A stretch of 64,000 nt of DNA from Aquiflexum gelatinilyticum. Its GTDB lineage: Bacteria; Bacteroidota; Bacteroidia; Cytophagales; Cyclobacteriaceae. Shown piece after piece: positions 3,852-56,304 of the stretch (position 1 is its first letter; every line of letters begins with the position of its first letter). Both the position numbers and the translations under genes were made by a program. The notes under the pieces are model-generated. The model made no database searches. It was given only the letters and a program-made list of their open reading frames with translations, and had not been told where the DNA came from. The stretch spans positions 310,001 to 374,000 of the forward strand of contig NZ_JANSUY010000003.1 of the NCBI RefSeq assembly GCF_024741135.1, read 5' to 3'.

Positions 3852-6304
3852 TAGACGGGAAGATTGACATATCGAAGTTTGAGCAGGAAGCTAAGCCTAT
3901 TGACATCAAGTATTACCTGATCAAGTATTCGCGTTATTGGCCTTTATACGCCACCTGTATATTCATTGCGATGGTTTTGGTTTTTTTGTTTCACCGCTAT
4001 TCGGTAGAAGAATACCAAGTGCAGGGCAGTGTGCTGATCAAGCCAAAAAATTCTCCTGAGGTGCGAATTCTGGACAGATCCAACATTTTTTCCGGAAGTA
4101 ATAACCTTGAAAATGACATCCTGTTGTTTACATCTAAAAACCTGGCAGAGGAAGCATTGAAAAAATTGCACTTTGATGTCAGCTATTATGCCTCGACCAA
4201 TATCAAAGAAGTAGAGTTGTATGACAAGTCACCGATCAAAGTATTGGTAGATTGGGATGTACATCAGACTGAAGGAGGGACAGTCCATTTTACCATGGTT
4301 TCTGATACCGAGTTTACCTTGACCAAGGAGGATAAGGCCTTTTTTGATTTTTTCAATTCAAAGAATAATAGGCCTTTGGATGAAGCGATTTTGAATAAAA
4401 CCTACAAGTTTGGCGAGGTGATCCAATCGGATCTTTCCAAGTTTGTCATCCACCAAAACAGGGACATGGAGGAGGGAGACAAGCTTTATTTTATAATCCA
4501 TAACCCTGTGGATGTATTGGACAATTATTCAAGGGCGGTAACAGTTAGGCCGATCAATAGCTTGGGAACTGTCTTGCAGGTATCGATGGTGTCTCAGGTG
4601 GTAGAAAAGGGAAGGGATTATGTGAATGCCCTGATGGATTCCTTTATAGATTATGACCTCAAGGAAAAGAACAGGATTTCAGAAAACACCCTGCGGTTTA
4701 TCAGTGATCAGATGCATATTCTGGAAGATACTTTGAAGATGGTCGAAAGTTCTATGCTGAACTTCAAGGTAGACAATAAGCTGATGGATGTGAACTCTGA
4801 ATTCGGCGGGGTTTTGGGCAATATCCAAAATCTTGAAGACCTGATTCAGGACATTGAGTTTGAATTGAGTTATTACAAGTCCCTGCAGACCTACCTCGGT
4901 AACAAGACCAAAGATTATTCCGATATCATTGCTCCATCCATAGTAGGCTTGAGTGACGGGTTTTTGAATGGATTGATTCAAAGTCTGGTTGGGGTATCTA
5001 TGGAGAGAAGGAAGTTGTTGGCAGTGGTCAATGAAAACCATCCCAATGTGGTGCAATTGGATGAACAGATCAGCAAGCTTAGGGAGAATATTTTTGAAAA
5101 TATCAACAACTTGGTTTCGAATACGGAGCGCAGGAAGGCAGAAGCCCAAAAAAGACTCAAAGAGTTGGATGGAGAGTTTGCCAAATTGCCCCAGACAGAA
5201 TCCGATTACACCAAGATTTTGAGGCAGTTTAAGTTGAGGGAAAACCTTTATAATTATCTTTTGGAGAAAAGGGCAGAGGCAGGCATTGCGAAAGCTTCAA
5301 ATATTCCGGACAATTCGGTATTGGATTATGCCCGAAGGGGAAGTTTGATATTTCCAAAGAAGGCTCAAAACTATGGTTTGGCATTGGGACTTGGATTTTT
5401 TATCCCCTTGTTGTTTTTGTTGGCTTTTCATTATCTCAACAACAGGATCATGGATCAAATCCAATTGAAGAATGCAATTAGGATACCTTTGTTGGGCACC
5501 ATCGGTTTGAGTAATAAGGATACCAATATGATCGTAGCCGAATTTCCAAAAGCCATGGTTTCGGAATCCTTCAGGTCATTGAGGTCAGCCTTGTTTTATA
5601 TTGCAAGTGAGAAAAAGTGTAAAAAAATTCTGGTCACTTCTTCGGTATCCGGAGAAGGAAAGACTTTTATCAGTCTTAACCTGGCAGCCGCAATGGCACT
5701 GAGTGGCAAGAAGACGGTTTTGATAGGGTTGGATTTGAGGAAACCGAAAATCGCAGATTATGTGGGCGTAGGCAATAAGGTAGGACTTTCCTCCTATTTG
5801 GTAGACCGGTCAACCAAGGAGGAAATTGTCATTCCTACCAAATATGAGAACCTGTATATAGTCCCTTCCGGACCTATTCCGCCCAATCCTGCTGAATTGT
5901 TGCTTAAAGACAAGATGACTGAGTTTCTGACTTACCTGGAAGGTGAATTTGATGTAGTGGTGATGGATACTCCTCCTATAGGTTTGGTGTCGGAAACAAT
6001 GGATTTGTTACGTTTCTCGGACGTAAACCTGTATATCATCCGCCAAGACTATACCCACAAAAAGTACCTGCTGATGATCAATGACCTTTATGCCAATGAT
6101 CAGATTAGGGATTTTTATGCTGTTTTCAATGGCATGCGGGCAGGAGGAGATATTTATGACTTTGGAGGTTATAATTATGGCTACGGCTATAATTATTCCT
6201 ATATGAGGAAAAACAAATATACCGGCAACTATTACGAAGACGATGATTCCAAGAAGAAACCGTCCCAATGGCTCGATAAACTTATAGGGAAGTTTAGGGT
6301 GTAA
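3848..6304 (+). CDS. Wzc-like polysaccharide co-polymerase with BY-type tyrosine kinase domain
   Basis: An 818-aa inner-membrane protein that sets chain length and drives export of a surface polysaccharide. An N-terminal helix (about 34-54) starts the Wzz domain. A long periplasmic coiled-coil region (about 250-480) and a second helix (about 510-532) follow, then the cytoplasmic kinase. Walker A is SGEGKT at 601-606, Walker A' contains LDLRKPK with Asp 629, and Walker B is VVVMDTPP around 703-709. The C-terminus carries ten Tyr in about 30 residues (roughly 769-797), the expected autophosphorylation cluster. It pairs with the Wza-like lipoprotein by ATGA overlap. No glycosyltransferases follow, so the sugar genes lie elsewhere. 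Confidence 0.92.
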   Translation: MIDGKIDISKFEQEAKPIDIKYYLIKYSRYWPLYATCIFIAMVLVFLFHRYSVEEYQVQGSVLIKPKNSPEVRILDRSNIFSGSNNLENDILLFTSKNLAEEALKKLHFDVSYYASTNIKEVELYDKSPIKVLVDWDVHQTEGGTVHFTMVSDTEFTLTKEDKAFFDFFNSKNNRPLDEAILNKTYKFGEVIQSDLSKFVIHQNRDMEEGDKLYFIIHNPVDVLDNYSRAVTVRPINSLGTVLQVSMVSQVVEKGRDYVNALMDSFIDYDLKEKNRISENTLRFISDQMHILEDTLKMVESSMLNFKVDNKLMDVNSEFGGVLGNIQNLEDLIQDIEFELSYYKSLQTYLGNKTKDYSDIIAPSIVGLSDGFLNGLIQSLVGVSMERRKLLAVVNENHPNVVQLDEQISKLRENIFENINNLVSNTERRKAEAQKRLKELDGEFAKLPQTESDYTKILRQFKLRENLYNYLLEKRAEAGIAKASNIPDNSVLDYARRGSLIFPKKAQNYGLALGLGFFIPLLFLLAFHYLNNRIMDQIQLKNAIRIPLLGTIGLSNKDTNMIVAEFPKAMVSESFRSLRSALFYIASEKKCKKILVTSSVSGEGKTFISLNLAAAMALSGKKTVLIGLDLRKPKIADYVGVGNKVGLSSYLVDRSTKEEIVIPTKYENLYIVPSGPIPPNPAELLLKDKMTEFLTYLEGEFDVVVMDTPPIGLVSETMDLLRFSDVNLYIIRQDYTHKKYLLMINDLYANDQIRDFYAVFNGMRAGGDIYDFGGYNYGYGYNYSYMRKNKYTGNYYEDDDSKKKPSQWLDKLIGKFRV

Positions 6305-53026: not shown

Positions 53027-53316
53027 TCCTGCAAAAGATTTTTTTATAGGACAATGGAAATATATAACATAAAGATTGTCAAATACTTAAATCTCACGGT
53101 TTTTAGATTTTTACTTGAAAGTGGTAAAAGATGGAGAGTTTTTAATATTAATTTAATTTGACCAAAATTAACTATTGGGTTCAATGATCCATTTTGATTA
53201 TCAGAATTATAGATAGAATTTCAGTAAAACCTTTTTACCTGTAATTAATTTTTGAGCGACATACTTTGGCGTTTCATACTTCTACTTTTGGAAAGACATT
53301 AGAAATAAAGAGAAAC
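53027..53316. other. Intergenic region upstream of the AAA/zinc-finger/exonuclease/WYL row
   Basis: 290 bp, clearly AT-rich compared with its neighbours, with no ORF, repeat or hairpin that I can support. It must contain the promoter of the four-gene row. The low GC is compatible with an accessory module boundary but is also common in promoters. Confidence 0.4.
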
Positions 53317-54474
53317 ATGAAAACATCCAACCAAATATCAACTAATAACGGGAAGAATTTTTTTGATCTTCAAAACACATCTGCAAATATGAGTCTTTCA
53401 GAAGTTTTTGCAGAGAGAAGTATCTCCTATCTTAATGAATTGACACTATTTCTAGCCCATTTTAATTGTATTCCCAATTTAATTGAAGAGATAGATATTG
53501 ATTGCAAAAAGGCCAATCTTTGGTTTAACAATAAGTTTGGATCAGAAGTTAAAGCGCATTATTTCAACAAAAGGTACTTCGGGGGAAGTGTTAAGGCAGA
53601 ACTTGATGATATCTATTATTTTTTGGAGGAAGATTTATTGGTTGATTTTGACACCAACAGTTCCATAGTTAGATTTTTATTCAGAAAAACTGACCCTTCA
53701 AAAATTGAGGAAATAATTAAAGGAATTAAAAAATTCAAAAAAGGAAGGACCAAGCGAAAGCCTAAGATTTTATTGCTTGTTGGTGGCATGAAAGGGATTT
53801 ATACAGAAGCATTGGCAATAACAAAGCCGAAATTGAATATTCAGGATAATTATAACGAAGGCTTTTATGAAGTTCATCAGACTATCATAAAAAGACTTTC
53901 CAAGAAAAATGATAAGGGTATAGTCCTGCTTCATGGCAAACCTGGAACAGGAAAAACTTCTTACATCCGGTACCTCATCGCATCACTTAAAAAGAAAATT
54001 ATTTTTCTTCCGCCAAATATGGCAGGAGCCATTACAAGCCCAAACCTTATTTCCATTCTGATCGAAAATCCAAATTCCATCTTTGTCATTGAAGATGCCG
54101 AAAATATTGTAGTGGATCGGGAACGGGATGGAGATTCACCGGTATCGGCATTGTTGAATATTTCAGATGGATTGCTTGCTGACTGTCTGAATGTTCAAAT
54201 AATCTGTTCTTTCAACATTGATATTTCAAAGATTGACAGTGCATTGATTCGGAAAGGAAGACTTATAGCAAAGTATGAATTCAAAGAATTAGAAGTGGCC
54301 AAAGCCCAACAGCTATCTAACAAACTCGGCTTCAAAACGACCTTTGACAAACCCATGACATTGACTTCAGTCTATAACCAAGAAGAAAAAGATTACCAAC
54401 AAGCCAAAATTAGTAATCCGGTAGGTTTTCAACTTTTAAGCAAAAACAGGCAAGCCGAAAACTGTATAGAGTAG
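53317..54474 (+). CDS. AAA+ family ATPase (Bcs1-like), first gene of a possible accessory module
   Basis: A 385-aa ATPase from ATG 53317 (a TTG-led frame from 53266 is longer). The N-terminal 150 residues match nothing I know. Walker A is GKPGTGKT at 207-214, Walker B reads FVIEDAE (256-262, ED order instead of the usual DE), and the Bcs1-type sensor and Arg-finger region is present as IDSALIRKGRLIAKYEF. It lies 22 bp before the zinc-finger gene and forms a tight same-strand row with an exonuclease and a WYL regulator. Confidence 0.8.
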   Translation: MKTSNQISTNNGKNFFDLQNTSANMSLSEVFAERSISYLNELTLFLAHFNCIPNLIEEIDIDCKKANLWFNNKFGSEVKAHYFNKRYFGGSVKAELDDIYYFLEEDLLVDFDTNSSIVRFLFRKTDPSKIEEIIKGIKKFKKGRTKRKPKILLLVGGMKGIYTEALAITKPKLNIQDNYNEGFYEVHQTIIKRLSKKNDKGIVLLHGKPGTGKTSYIRYLIASLKKKIIFLPPNMAGAITSPNLISILIENPNSIFVIEDAENIVVDRERDGDSPVSALLNISDGLLADCLNVQIICSFNIDISKIDSALIRKGRLIAKYEFKELEVAKAQQLSNKLGFKTTFDKPMTLTSVYNQEEKDYQQAKISNPVGFQLLSKNRQAENCIE

Positions 54475-54496
54475 GCATCAAAATGAATTCAAAAAA

Positions 54497-54748
54497 ATGG
54501 CAAATTTTTATTGTGAATATTGTGGGTCAAAGTATCCAAGTGTGGCTAGTTTGACGAGTGCCCAATGTATGAGGTTTCCCAATGGACCAAATAATGGAAA
54601 ACACAAACTTTATGAAGGAAGCGAAAAATCACAATATGTCTGTAAATATTGCGCTACCAAATATTCTTCAGTTCCTTTCTTGACAAGCTATCTATGCATG
54701 AGGCATCCAAGCGGTTCTAATAAAGGGAAACACGCACTAGCTTTATAG
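54497..54748 (+). CDS. Tandem CCCH zinc-finger protein, 83 aa
   Basis: Two near-identical units 43 residues apart, each Y-x-C-x2-C with a following KY-x-SV-x2-LTS and CMR-x-P-x-G-x-N-x-GKH. Ligands are Cys 6, 9, 24 and His 36, and Cys 49, 52, 67 and His 79 (C-x2-C-x14-C-x11-H). Such regularity predicts two zinc-binding modules that could hold DNA, RNA or a protein. The stop is 3 bp before the exonuclease ATG. I do not know a named family. Confidence 0.75.
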   Translation: MANFYCEYCGSKYPSVASLTSAQCMRFPNGPNNGKHKLYEGSEKSQYVCKYCATKYSSVPFLTSYLCMRHPSGSNKGKHALAL

Positions 54749-54751
54749 ATT

Positions 54752-55228
54752 ATGGATTCATTTACCGCCATAGATTTTGAAACCGCGCAGGGATACCGAT
54801 GGAGTATTTGTCAGGTCGGATTGGTCCGGGTGGAGAATCGAATCATCACAGAGAAATTATCCATTCTCGTCCGGCCGCCAAAAAATTACTATTGGAATAA
54901 ATTTATTGACATACATGGAATTACTCCCGAACAAACTGCGGAATTACCAACGTTTGATTTAATTTGGGATCAAATTGAGCCTTTTATCACAAACCAGAAT
55001 GTAGTAGCCCACAATGGATTCCGCTTTGATTTTCAATGCTTAAAGGAGACACTGGCGTATTATGGTATTTCAATTCCGGTATTTACAGGGCATTGTACCT
55101 ACCGCATATTTGGAGTTAACTTGGCTTTCCTTTGCAAGAACTATGGAATCCAATTATACCACCATGATGCCCTGACCGATGTAATGGCTTGTGCAGAATT
55201 GTTTAAAATTTATTCACAAAACCAATAA
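54752..55228 (+). CDS. DEDDh 3'-5' exonuclease (DnaQ/PolC epsilon-like)
   Basis: A 158-aa single-domain exonuclease of the DnaQ family. The acidic residues are FTAIDFETA (Asp and Glu, ExoI), HNGFRFDFQCL (Asp, ExoII) and the H-x4-D pair in HHDALTDV (ExoIII, DEDDh type). The size equals the bare catalytic domain without extra modules. It removes nucleotides from 3' ends of DNA or RNA; the target is open. Its start is 3 bp after the zinc-finger gene, so co-translation is likely. Confidence 0.92.
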   Translation: MDSFTAIDFETAQGYRWSICQVGLVRVENRIITEKLSILVRPPKNYYWNKFIDIHGITPEQTAELPTFDLIWDQIEPFITNQNVVAHNGFRFDFQCLKETLAYYGISIPVFTGHCTYRIFGVNLAFLCKNYGIQLYHHDALTDVMACAELFKIYSQNQ

Positions 55229-55288
55229 TAGGAAGTTGAGTTAAGAGGTTTTATTTGTTGATTTTTATTTAAATGAGTTCACTAACTG

Positions 55289-56206
55289 ATGTCCAAACGA
55301 GGCTACATATCGCGCTACTTGCTTATTCTAAAAAAGTTGAAATTAAAACCTTATTCAACTTATGAGGAATTGCAAGCCTATATAGAAAATCAATTCGATT
55401 ACCTGCAGGTGCAGGATGATACTTTGAATATTGGCTTTTCGAAGCGAACGCTTCAAAGAGACATCAAGGAAATCAGAAACGTTTTTGGGATTGACATCGA
55501 ATTTTCAAAATCCAATAAGGGATATTTTATAAGCCAAAACGAAAATGAAAACATGAATTTCCAAAGAATGATGGAGGCATTCGATATGTTTAATTCTTTA
55601 AATCTGGCGCAGGATTTAACTCCTTTTATTCACTTGGAAAAACGCAGGCCACAGGGAACAGAAAATCTATACGGACTCCTTCACAGTATCAAGAATAGGT
55701 TAAAAATCGAATTTACATATCAGAAGTTTTGGGACGACGAACTGAGCCGACGAATAGTGGAACCCTATGCTTTGAAGGAATTCAAAAACCGATGGTATAT
55801 AATTGCTAAAGACTCCAAAGACAATGACATCAAAAGTTTTGCTTTGGACCGTTTGACGCAGCTTGAAATTTCAAAGCAGACTTTTGTTTATCCCAAGAAT
55901 TATAGCGTTGAAGAAAATTATCGCTATTGTTTTGGAATCATAAGTCCAAATGGAGAATCACCCCAAGATATTATTTTAGCATTTGACCCTTTTCAGGGAA
56001 AGTATATCAAAACATTGCCTTTGCATGACTCTCAGGTGATTTTGATAGACAATTCTGAAGAAATAAGGATCAAACTCAGGTTATGCCTTACTCATGATTT
56101 TTTGATGGAATTACTTTCTTTCGGAGAATACCTGAAAGTAATCGAGCCAAAGGCTTTGGCCGATAAGGTGAAAAAATCCCATGAGAAAGCATATAAGCAC
56201 TACTGA
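55289..56206 (+). CDS. WYL domain transcriptional regulator
   Basis: A 305-aa protein with an N-terminal winged helix (about 1-75: SKRTLQRDIKEIRNVFGIDIEF), a central WYL domain (about 130-215: RIVEPYALKEFKNRWYIIAKD, FALDRLTQLEI) and a C-terminal WCX-like part with EIRIKLRLCLTHDFLMELLSFGE. WYL proteins bind nucleic-acid or nucleotide ligands and often regulate phage-defence and mobile genes. It lies 60 bp after the exonuclease gene, last of the row, and may control it. Confidence 0.92.
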   Translation: MSKRGYISRYLLILKKLKLKPYSTYEELQAYIENQFDYLQVQDDTLNIGFSKRTLQRDIKEIRNVFGIDIEFSKSNKGYFISQNENENMNFQRMMEAFDMFNSLNLAQDLTPFIHLEKRRPQGTENLYGLLHSIKNRLKIEFTYQKFWDDELSRRIVEPYALKEFKNRWYIIAKDSKDNDIKSFALDRLTQLEISKQTFVYPKNYSVEENYRYCFGIISPNGESPQDIILAFDPFQGKYIKTLPLHDSQVILIDNSEEIRIKLRLCLTHDFLMELLSFGEYLKVIEPKALADKVKKSHEKAYKHY

Positions 56207-56304
56207 TTTTGGAGAAGGATTTGGTAATTGTTGAGATTAATCCGACAAATCTGATTCCTATAATCTCATCGTTTTTACCTTACGGTTACAAATAATTACT
56301 CCCC

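What the first reader, a model, noticed from the sequence alone, without database searches (positions are those of the whole stretch)
53317..56206. Compact AAA ATPase / tandem zinc finger / DEDDh exonuclease / WYL row: candidate undescribed defence-type module
Seen: four same-strand genes with gaps of 22, 3 and 60 bp, preceded by an AT-rich 290-bp region, with unrelated housekeeping transporters upstream and a T9SS peptidase downstream. Known: WYL regulators and DnaQ-like nucleases with AAA ATPases recur in anti-phage systems. Inference: the ATPase could use the zinc-finger protein to choose a nucleic-acid target for the exonuclease, with the WYL protein controlling expression. I do not recognise this gene set as a named system.
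Basis: partly seen in the sequence, partly recalled or inferred. Interest (0 to 1): 0.75.

Follow-up and report, generated by a model that had tools for sequence, protein, structure and literature searches.

The report
Stripped-down WYL-controlled bacterial defence cassette
Four bacterial genes form one small genetic unit; it looks like a pared-down form of a cassette in which an ATPase and a switch protein recur while the DNA-cutting genes between them are swapped, lost or kept, probably to fight viruses, though no such activity has been tested.

Summary
The four genes and their 22, 3 and 60 bp gaps are real. They are one functional unit: against the copy in Cognataquiflexum nitidum (L002), homology covers 53240-56209 and stops in different flanks, and all four genes are under purifying selection (dN/dS 0.04-0.22). 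The row is one form of a wider Bacteroidota cassette: a Bcs1-like AAA ATPase leads, a WYL regulator lies downstream, and the middle is exchangeable. Of 105 ATPase copies examined, 33 have that layout; between the two, 16 carry GmrSD/DUF262 restriction genes, 18 the DEDDh exonuclease, 3 nothing. Trees suggest the window's lineage lost DUF262 genes; none was found in its genome. A conserved dyad element precedes the ATPase: 24 of 30 copies with the WYL gene, 4 of 23 without; a TAnnTTTG promoter element follows it at 8 bp in 45 of 55, like a CapW/BrxR operator. The 83-aa zinc-finger protein is not specific to the module: it also precedes DUF262 genes on plasmids and follows kinase-like genes. Defence is inferred, not shown. 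Reader partly right; new variant of a known kind.

The parts
53240..56209 (+). whole cassette: stretch homologous to the C. nitidum copy (L002/G121), with different DNA on both sides
   Evidence: blastn 91.4% over 53240-55232 and 92.9% over 55265-56209; of window 40001-64000 only one further 63-bp piece aligns to L002
53255..53274 (+). candidate WYL operator AGCGACATACTTTGGCGTTT, an imperfect dyad, 42 bp before the AAA start
   Evidence: motif and position conserved in related loci; dyad test; core 16-mer pattern once in the 5.0 Mb genome, the backward control pattern also once
53283..53290 (+). TACTTTTG, a TAnnTTTG promoter element (Bacteroidota -7 box, recalled), 8 bp after the operator
   Evidence: same 8-bp spacing in 45 of 55 sites; 58 of 559 control segments hold a TAnnTTTG anywhere
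53317..54474 (+). Bcs1-like AAA ATPase, first gene
   Evidence: PF00004; profile search best hits BCS1 4e-9; model pLDDT 82.8, pTM 0.58, PDB fold ranks 1-15 all Bcs1 or YjoB; G207, G210, G212, K213, E259, D260, N300, R312, R315 invariant in the 70-row alignment
54497..54748 (+). 83-aa tandem C-x2-C-x14-C-x11-H small protein (ZNF), probable zinc binder
   Evidence: 14-row alignment: C9, C24, H36, C49, C52, C67 invariant, C6 and H79 at least 90%; zinc binding inferred
54752..55228 (+). DEDDh 3'-5' exonuclease, the only nuclease recognised in the row
   Evidence: RNase_T 2.1e-14; D8, E10, D93, H138, D143 kept in 34 of 34 covering alignment pieces, 35 pieces in all, re-fetched copies of the window's own gene included
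55229..55288 (+). cargo slot: where relatives carry one or two DUF262/GmrSD genes; here 60 bp, in L002 181 bp and largely unalignable
55289..56206 (+). WYL-WCX regulator, last gene here; homology to L002 ends just after its stop codon
   Evidence: PF13280 and PF25583; weak PDB sequence matches to PafBC 6sj9, 8tp8 and CapW 7tb5

Best explanation
This is a pared-down form of a Bacteroidota cassette that I read as anti-phage defence. Shown by comparison: in a third of the ATPase copies examined a Bcs1-like AAA gene leads and a WYL-WCX gene follows on the same strand, with exchangeable, mostly nuclease-type cargo between them; and a conserved dyad element sits at the promoter of the ATPase. Inferred: the WYL protein represses the row at that dyad, as CapW and BrxR do at theirs, and lets go when its WYL domain binds a nucleic-acid ligand that appears on infection or DNA damage. 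The row is then expressed; the AAA ring remodels a protein partner or target, and the DEDDh exonuclease degrades nucleic acid. The small Cys/His protein is an interchangeable accessory, replaced in relatives by a 99-aa repeat protein or nothing. The window's lineage probably once had DUF262 (GmrSD-type) restriction genes between exonuclease and WYL and lost them, and the four genes kept working without them.
For: Unit and selection: boundaries; dN/dS AAA 0.216, ZNF 0.152, EXO 0.135, WYL 0.042; dS 0.24-0.37 against 0.31 and 0.48 for two neighbouring genes. Architecture: 33 of 105 AAA copies (32 loci, L026 twice; 28 after removing near-duplicates) have a close WYL gene downstream on the same strand; between them DUF262 in 16, EXO in 18 (L026 counted twice, L061 a fragment), nothing in 3. 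Cargo: GmrSD_N in all six DUF262 representatives tested, GmrSD_C in two; metallophosphoesterase = PADLOC candidate PDC-S10 and PD-(D/E)XK = PDC-S26. Loss: in both trees win+L002 lie inside starred clades of 8 rows, 5 DUF262+ in the AAA tree (95/95) and 6 in the WYL tree (97/85); no PF03235 match in the own genome, a 35-position match below the cut-off in G121. Regulation: operator in 24 of 30 against 4 of 23 deduplicated copies, Fisher p 7e-6; 267 of 371 dyad cells complementary against 42-150 for slid registers; TAnnTTTG 8 bp on in 45 of 55. Co-divergence rho 0.62, 0 of 2000. Patchiness: AAA in 17 of 395 (at most 5 candidates scored per genome, so a lower bound) and ZNF in 6 of 395 Bacteroidota genomes. 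Papers: CapW (PMC9122588) and BrxR (PMC9122601) bind palindromes or inverted repeats at defence promoters (passages); DriD and PafBC bind ssDNA (abstract start and title in a listing).
Against: No defence activity has been measured. The row is not in a visible defence island: the four flanking genes searched are two membrane transport proteins and two secretion-related genes. No PADLOC system is hit, only component-type models. The AAA-WYL link is common, not general: of 105 AAA copies 4 have the WYL on the same strand but upstream or distant, 9 on the other strand, 7 only a weak or partial WYL, 52 none seen. The 'AAA first, WYL later' order in the 33 was a selection criterion, and in 15 of the 33 another same-strand ORF of 60 aa or more follows the WYL gene within 150 bp, so WYL being last is shown only for the window and L002. 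A motif-free dyad scan showed no enrichment (27 of 104 against 211 of 834). In the majority operator form (29 of 53) one symmetric pair is A-G; and the column-shuffle result (1 of 2000) is also reached by a register slid by one. Operator seen in 4 of 23 copies without WYL in the flank and, by the cut-off used, missing in 6 of 30 with it; 13 of the 34 unclassed copies have it. The PWM was trained on the same loci, and relatedness inflates Fisher's test. Of 19 more distant WYL neighbourhoods fetched, 5 have this AAA family. Three copies have AAA and WYL with nothing between, so the exonuclease need not be the effector of the general system.
Confidence: 0.6

Rival explanations
1. A DNA-damage response or repair operon rather than a phage-defence unit: the WYL protein senses ssDNA made by damage, and the exonuclease and AAA protein serve repair or clean-up.
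For: The best sequence match of the WYL protein among solved structures is PafBC (6sj9, E 1.4e-5), a DNA-damage regulator (PMC6789036, abstract start); the exonuclease best matches a DNA polymerase III epsilon-type family, below its cut-off; the flanks searched are not defence genes.
Against: The same pair of genes encloses GmrSD-type restriction genes and PADLOC candidate genes in relatives; patchy distribution, 17 of 395 genomes (lower bound), is unlike a repair operon; repeated cargo change.
Confidence: 0.22
2. A decaying remnant of a type IV restriction cassette that lost its DUF262 effector and has no present function.
For: Tree position inside DUF262-rich clades; the slot between EXO and WYL differs between the two genomes; in six relatives (L003, L004, L005, L007, L009, L020) a further ORF overlaps the WYL end and none does here.
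Against: dN/dS 0.04-0.22 in all four genes over dS of about 0.3, catalytic residues intact, promoter and operator motif intact; other forms with EXO but without DUF262 exist (L026, L037, L075, L144).
Confidence: 0.08
3. Control genes of a mobile element or old prophage: the AAA protein is phage-derived and the row is moron cargo.
For: AAA relatives in 113 of 50,697 phage records, the 12 listed all from genomes of 284 kb or more, and in 17 viral loci, one (L082) matching almost the full length at 49%; the ZNF occurs in one viral contig and five plasmid records.
Against: No integrase, transposase or phage gene among the four flanking genes searched; the INPHARED relatives listed match only about half of the protein; no plasmid record covers 80% of the AAA.
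Confidence: 0.08
4. Two independent neighbours: an AAA-WYL pair and a chance-adjacent ZNF and exonuclease.
For: AAA and WYL alone occur in L041, L046 and L074; ZNF and EXO each occur elsewhere without the other.
Against: EXO lies between AAA and WYL in 18 of 33 copies; the 3-bp ZNF-EXO gap and shared homology with L002.
Confidence: 0.02

Closest known systems
CapW (WYL repressor of CBASS, PMC9122588) and BrxR (WYL repressor of BREX, PMC9122601)
   Same: WYL-WCX protein (an HTH only by a Pfam hit below cut-off), dyad element at the promoter of a multigene unit, company of type IV restriction genes in relatives (BrxR: 37 of 210 associated systems, passage).
   Different: Here the WYL gene is at the end of the row, whereas the BrxR passages describe systems downstream of brxR; no CBASS or BREX gene was found in the row; a Bcs1-like AAA partner is not in the passages I saw.
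GmrSD/DUF262 type IV restriction enzymes (BrxU, SspE type)
   Same: DUF262 proteins are the commonest large cargo between the same AAA and WYL genes in relatives; the ZNF protein lies just before DUF262 genes in L047, L206, L207 and L209.
   Different: The window's row has no DUF262 gene, and none was found in its genome.
Bcs1 / YjoB AAA proteins
   Same: AAA sequence and fold.
   Different: The N-terminal 190 residues evolve faster (dN/dS 0.25 against 0.13 for the rest) and the whole-chain fold match is modest (TM 0.37-0.46); a conserved (I/V/M)GF near the C terminus; a multigene bacterial setting.
DnaQ-like DEDDh exonucleases of PADLOC (DEDDh CRISPR-associated; PDC-S48)
   Same: Family-level match.
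   Different: Stand-alone 158-aa protein; the PDC-S48 models are 411 and 512 long and only their front part matches.

Membership tests
Named defence systems in PADLOC-DB 2.0.0 | full gene set of a named system present | tested here: not met
   component-type hits for EXO (DEDDh, PDC-S48) and WYL (also part-matches to Cas3c and AbiEii models); ATPase hits to RecD, Mad8, TRIP13, IetA and others only at E 0.0005 or worse; none for ZNF
CapW/BrxR-type WYL repressors | WYL and WCX domains behind a DNA-binding domain | tested here: met
   PF13280 and PF25583 above cut-off; the HTH only as HTH_11 at E 0.015, below cut-off
CapW/BrxR-type WYL repressors | dyad operator at the promoter of the unit | tested here: met
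   motif conserved, symmetric and phased with the promoter; motif-free scan negative; binding not tested
CapW/BrxR-type WYL repressors | WYL gene upstream of the genes it controls (as in the BrxR passages) | tested here: not met
   WYL is the last gene of the row in the window and L002
CapW/BrxR-type WYL repressors | repression relieved on infection | not testable with these tools
   needs reporter assays
GmrSD/DUF262 type IV restriction | GmrSD_N (PF03235) protein | tested here: not met
   none in the row, none found in the genome; present in relatives between the same genes
Bcs1-like AAA ATPases | Bcs1-type AAA module | tested here: met
   profile search BCS1 4e-9 best; fold search ranks 1-15 Bcs1/YjoB
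Bcs1-like AAA ATPases | Bcs1-type N-terminal region and heptameric translocation of folded protein (recalled) | tested here: inconclusive
   whole-chain TM 0.37-0.46 for ranks 1-15; oligomer not testable here
DEDDh exonucleases | five catalytic residues (motif assignment recalled) | tested here: met
   D8, E10, D93, H138, D143, in 34 of 34 covering alignment pieces

The most novel reading that the evidence does not exclude
Bacteroidota carry a defence chassis with a swap slot: a Bcs1-like AAA ATPase behind a phase-locked WYL operator at the front, the WYL repressor downstream, and interchangeable nucleic-acid-destroying cargo between. The AAA protein, not the cargo, is then the common sensor or motor that arms whatever nuclease is in the slot. 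The window's copy is a stand-alone AAA-exonuclease immune system reached by losing the restriction enzymes.
Probability: 0.36. Interest if true: 0.82.

Novelty: new variant of a known kind. Interest (0 to 1): 0.6.

Why it matters
If right, it adds a modular defence layout, recurrent ATPase and regulator with exchangeable nucleases, to a phylum whose defence systems are less studied than those of E. coli (general knowledge). It also gives a clean, testable regulator-operator pair and a natural experiment, since the same ATPase and regulator exist with and without restriction enzymes between them. It would put Bcs1-like ATPases, best known from mitochondria, into a bacterial conflict system.

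Tried and rejected
Rejected: the zinc-finger protein as a marker of the module. In an even sample it is in 6 of 395 Bacteroidota genomes; of the five beside the window's own, one has the AAA near it (G017) and four lie behind a large kinase-like gene (L167-L170, judged by eye; in L167 one more gene lies between and the contig ends soon after).

Rejected: a recently arrived island. Module dS to the sister copy (0.24-0.37) is close to that of two neighbouring genes (0.31, 0.48), so it is about as old as the split of the two species.

Rejected: the row fixed at one site. The same-genus genome G064 has the upstream channel gene and the downstream peptidase region 7.8 kb apart, and its only WYL match at E 1e-30 is 39% identical and elsewhere; 1.7 kb of that interval was not read. 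In G121 the cassette lies on another contig between a fragment that resembles an S9-type peptidase gene (by eye) and a 63-bp piece like the end of the PorP gene. G064 holds relatives of both pieces in one neighbourhood, so one insertion followed by rearrangement is possible; not resolved.

Led nowhere: motif-free dyad scan, no enrichment; phmmer of the exonuclease against the PDB, nothing at 1e-6; Pfam on five small cargo proteins, nothing at 1e-4. Literature: no paper holds 3 of the terms DUF262, WYL, AAA ATPase, Bacteroidetes, and seven further listings, each showing only its top rows, had no title or abstract start that describes it. Most subscription papers are not in the library.

Rows dropped: one search set aside 18 of 105 AAA copies as near-duplicates and left 34 of the remaining 87 unclassed (short flank, or WYL distant, weak or on the other strand); its WYL class also accepts WYL up to 3 kb upstream (L038, L049). 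One search used 53 distinct of 57 sites, chosen by PWM score and distance. One search left out L004 as a near-copy; one search's permutation test left out L144, L192, L026 and L026a (29 loci used). In one search the window itself is not among the 33 (L002 is), and the printed 'none: 4' counts L044 by a filter slip of mine; three have nothing between.
Full report
Observation. Pfam gives AAA, RNase_T and WYL-WCX, and for the 83-aa protein nothing above a cut-off. The row is preceded by AT-rich DNA and flanked by an AI-2E transporter and a mechanosensitive channel upstream and an M64 peptidase with a T9SS tail downstream.

One unit. The closest relative of the row is in Cognataquiflexum nitidum (L002; the same 59,793-bp contig as G121:C33). 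DNA homology runs from 53240 to 55232 (91.4%) and from 55265 to 56209 (92.9%); of window 40001-64000 only one 63-bp piece aligns besides, to another part of the window. The ends are therefore about 77 bp before the AAA start codon and just after the WYL stop codon. The break in homology lies in the EXO-WYL spacer: 60 bp here, 181 bp in L002. Purifying selection acts on all four genes (dN/dS 0.216, 0.152, 0.135, 0.042), with dS 0.24-0.37 against 0.31 and 0.48 for the two neighbouring genes, so the four-gene form is functional and about as old as the species split. A second genome of the genus (G064) has the flanking genes 7.8 kb apart and no close WYL.

What it belongs to. A scan of 84,980 species genomes with the ATPase found 173 relatives by pattern, of which the best 80 were returned. 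With loci from even and family samples added, 105 ATPase copies of 300 aa or more were examined. Of these, 33 (32 loci; 28 after removing near-duplicates) have a close WYL gene downstream on the same strand within 7.5 kb; 4 have one on the same strand elsewhere, 9 on the other strand, 7 only a weak or partial one, and 52 none in the fetched DNA, 27 of these with 7.4 kb or more of downstream flank. In the 33, what lies between differs: GmrSD/DUF262-type proteins in 16, the exonuclease in 18, nothing in 3; others hold a metallophosphoesterase (PADLOC candidate PDC-S10), a PD-(D/E)XK nuclease (PDC-S26), DnaB-like or RhuM-like proteins (named by eye), or unknown small proteins. A common full form is ATPase, 99-aa repeat protein, exonuclease, one or two DUF262 proteins, WYL; in 15 of the 33 a further same-strand ORF follows the WYL gene within 150 bp, so the WYL gene as the last one is shown for the window and L002 only. 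In the ATPase tree the DUF262 state changes at least 8 times over 33 rows (starred branches alone force 3), in the WYL tree 6 times over 32 rows (5 forced). In both, the window and L002 lie within a starred clade of 8 rows, of which 5 (ATPase) or 6 (WYL) have DUF262, which makes loss in this lineage the simpler reading. No DUF262 gene was found in the window's genome; G121 has a 35-position match below the cut-off, G064 two above it. ATPase and WYL distances correlate (rho 0.62, 29 loci, 0 of 2000 permutations).

Regulation. A 20-bp element, AGCGACA-N4-TTGGCGTTT-like, lies about 40 bp before the ATPase start in many of these loci. After removing near-duplicates, it is found in 24 of 30 copies with a close same-strand WYL gene and in 4 of 23 with at least 7.4 kb of downstream flank and no WYL gene (Fisher p 7e-6; 34 of the 87 deduplicated copies fell in neither class, 13 of them with the element; the model was trained on the same loci). 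Over 53 distinct copies, 267 of 371 symmetric cells are complementary, against 42 to 150 in slid registers; 1 of 2000 column shuffles reaches this, but a register slid by one also gives 1 of 2000, so the slid registers are the better control. Variants such as ACGCCA-TTGGCGT (L041), ACGACA-TTGTCGT (L018) and ACGTCA-TTGACGT (L192) keep the symmetry with different bases. Against this, a motif-free dyad scan was not enriched (27 of 104, control 211 of 834). A TAnnTTTG element, the Bacteroidota -7 box (recalled), follows exactly 8 bp later in 45 of 55 sites and 9 bp in one; 58 of 559 control segments hold one anywhere. The core 16-mer occurs once in the 5.0 Mb genome, at this promoter; the same pattern read backwards also occurs once, so the count says only that there is no wider set of exact sites. 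CapW binds imperfect palindromes of 19, 21 and 24 bp that overlap the -10 site of CBASS promoters, and BrxR an 11-bp inverted repeat with 5-bp spacer (passages of PMC9122588 and PMC9122601), so the layout fits a WYL repressor.

Parts. The ATPase is Bcs1-like by sequence profile and fold (PDB ranks 1-15, TM 0.37-0.46; model pLDDT 82.8, pTM 0.58); among viral folds the top named hits are phage ATPases, and 113 of 50,697 phage records match, the listed ones over its AAA half. Nearly all relatives shown carry an (I/V/M)GF-like motif near the end (L029 LGF, L070 IGY, one broken L071 copy without). The exonuclease keeps its five catalytic residues (34 of 34 covering alignment pieces). The WYL protein matches PafBC, 8tp8 and CapW 7tb5 weakly; that DriD and PafBC bind ssDNA is from an abstract start and a title in a listing. 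The 83-aa protein is rare (6 of 395 genomes). It stands just before DUF262 genes on a Myroides plasmid, on a Hymenobacter plasmid (WYL, finger, DUF262, DUF262) and in a viral contig; directly after the ATPase in L002, L047 and L143, one or two ORFs after it in L025 and L081 (the latter with an internal stop), and two genes before it in L144; and behind kinase-like genes in four genomes. So it travels with these systems but is not tied to the exonuclease.

How it most likely works. Steps shown by comparison: unit, recurrent ATPase and WYL with exchangeable cargo, operator-like element phased with the promoter, selection, conserved active-site residues. Steps inferred: WYL binds the element and represses; a nucleic-acid ligand from infection or damage releases it; the AAA ring acts on a protein partner or target; the exonuclease degrades nucleic acid. 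Defence rather than repair is inferred from cargo (type IV restriction enzymes and PADLOC candidates), patchiness (17 of 395 genomes, a lower bound) and cargo turnover. I put this at 0.6 and the repair reading at 0.22.

Known or new. No PADLOC system covers the set, and eight searches of open-access papers (top rows of the listings only) showed nothing on an AAA-WYL cassette with DUF262 or exonuclease cargo. The components and the idea of WYL-controlled defence are known; the layout with a Bcs1-like ATPase, a WYL regulator and a swap slot appears undescribed as far as these searches reach. I rate it a new variant of a known kind.

Noticed in passing
L003, L004, L005, L007 (whole cassettes): Very similar AAA-REP99-EXO-DUF262-WYL cassettes in Parapedobacter defluvii and several other Bacteroidota records (L007 with other DUF262 types): likely horizontal transfer. 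L008 (Phycisphaerales MAG) and L020 (Rickettsiales MAG) may be misbinned contigs.
   Followed up: partly
L168:8287-12362, L169, L170, L167: The same 83-aa Cys/His protein sits downstream of a large sensor-kinase-like gene, in three genomes with a 250-aa LytTR-like regulator before it (judged by eye): a second, non-defence-looking context for it.
   Followed up: partly
window AAA C terminus, about residues 369-371: A conserved (I/V/M)GF motif near the C terminus of nearly all relatives, phage ones included, reminiscent of docking motifs of AAA unfoldases (recalled).
   Followed up: no
L003:9182-9481: 99-aa protein of near-identical repeats that takes the place of the zinc-finger protein in 10 loci (11 with L078); only a Pfam hit below cut-off.
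   Followed up: no
L003:14726-15106 and the same place in L004, L005, L007, L009, L020: An ORF of 88-140 aa overlaps the end of the WYL gene in near relatives (one cluster in at least five of them) and is absent in the window: possibly a further cassette member.
   Followed up: no
L129 (G064), reverse-complement coordinates 4470-5483: In the stretch between channel gene and peptidase region of a sister genome, short ORFs resemble DUF1016-type nuclease fragments (by eye): a variable, perhaps decaying spot.
   Followed up: no
L148, L149, L150, L153: More distant WYL genes each lie beside a divergently oriented ORF of 701 aa in four genomes, two of them with DUF262 genes nearby: possibly another WYL-linked system.
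   Followed up: no
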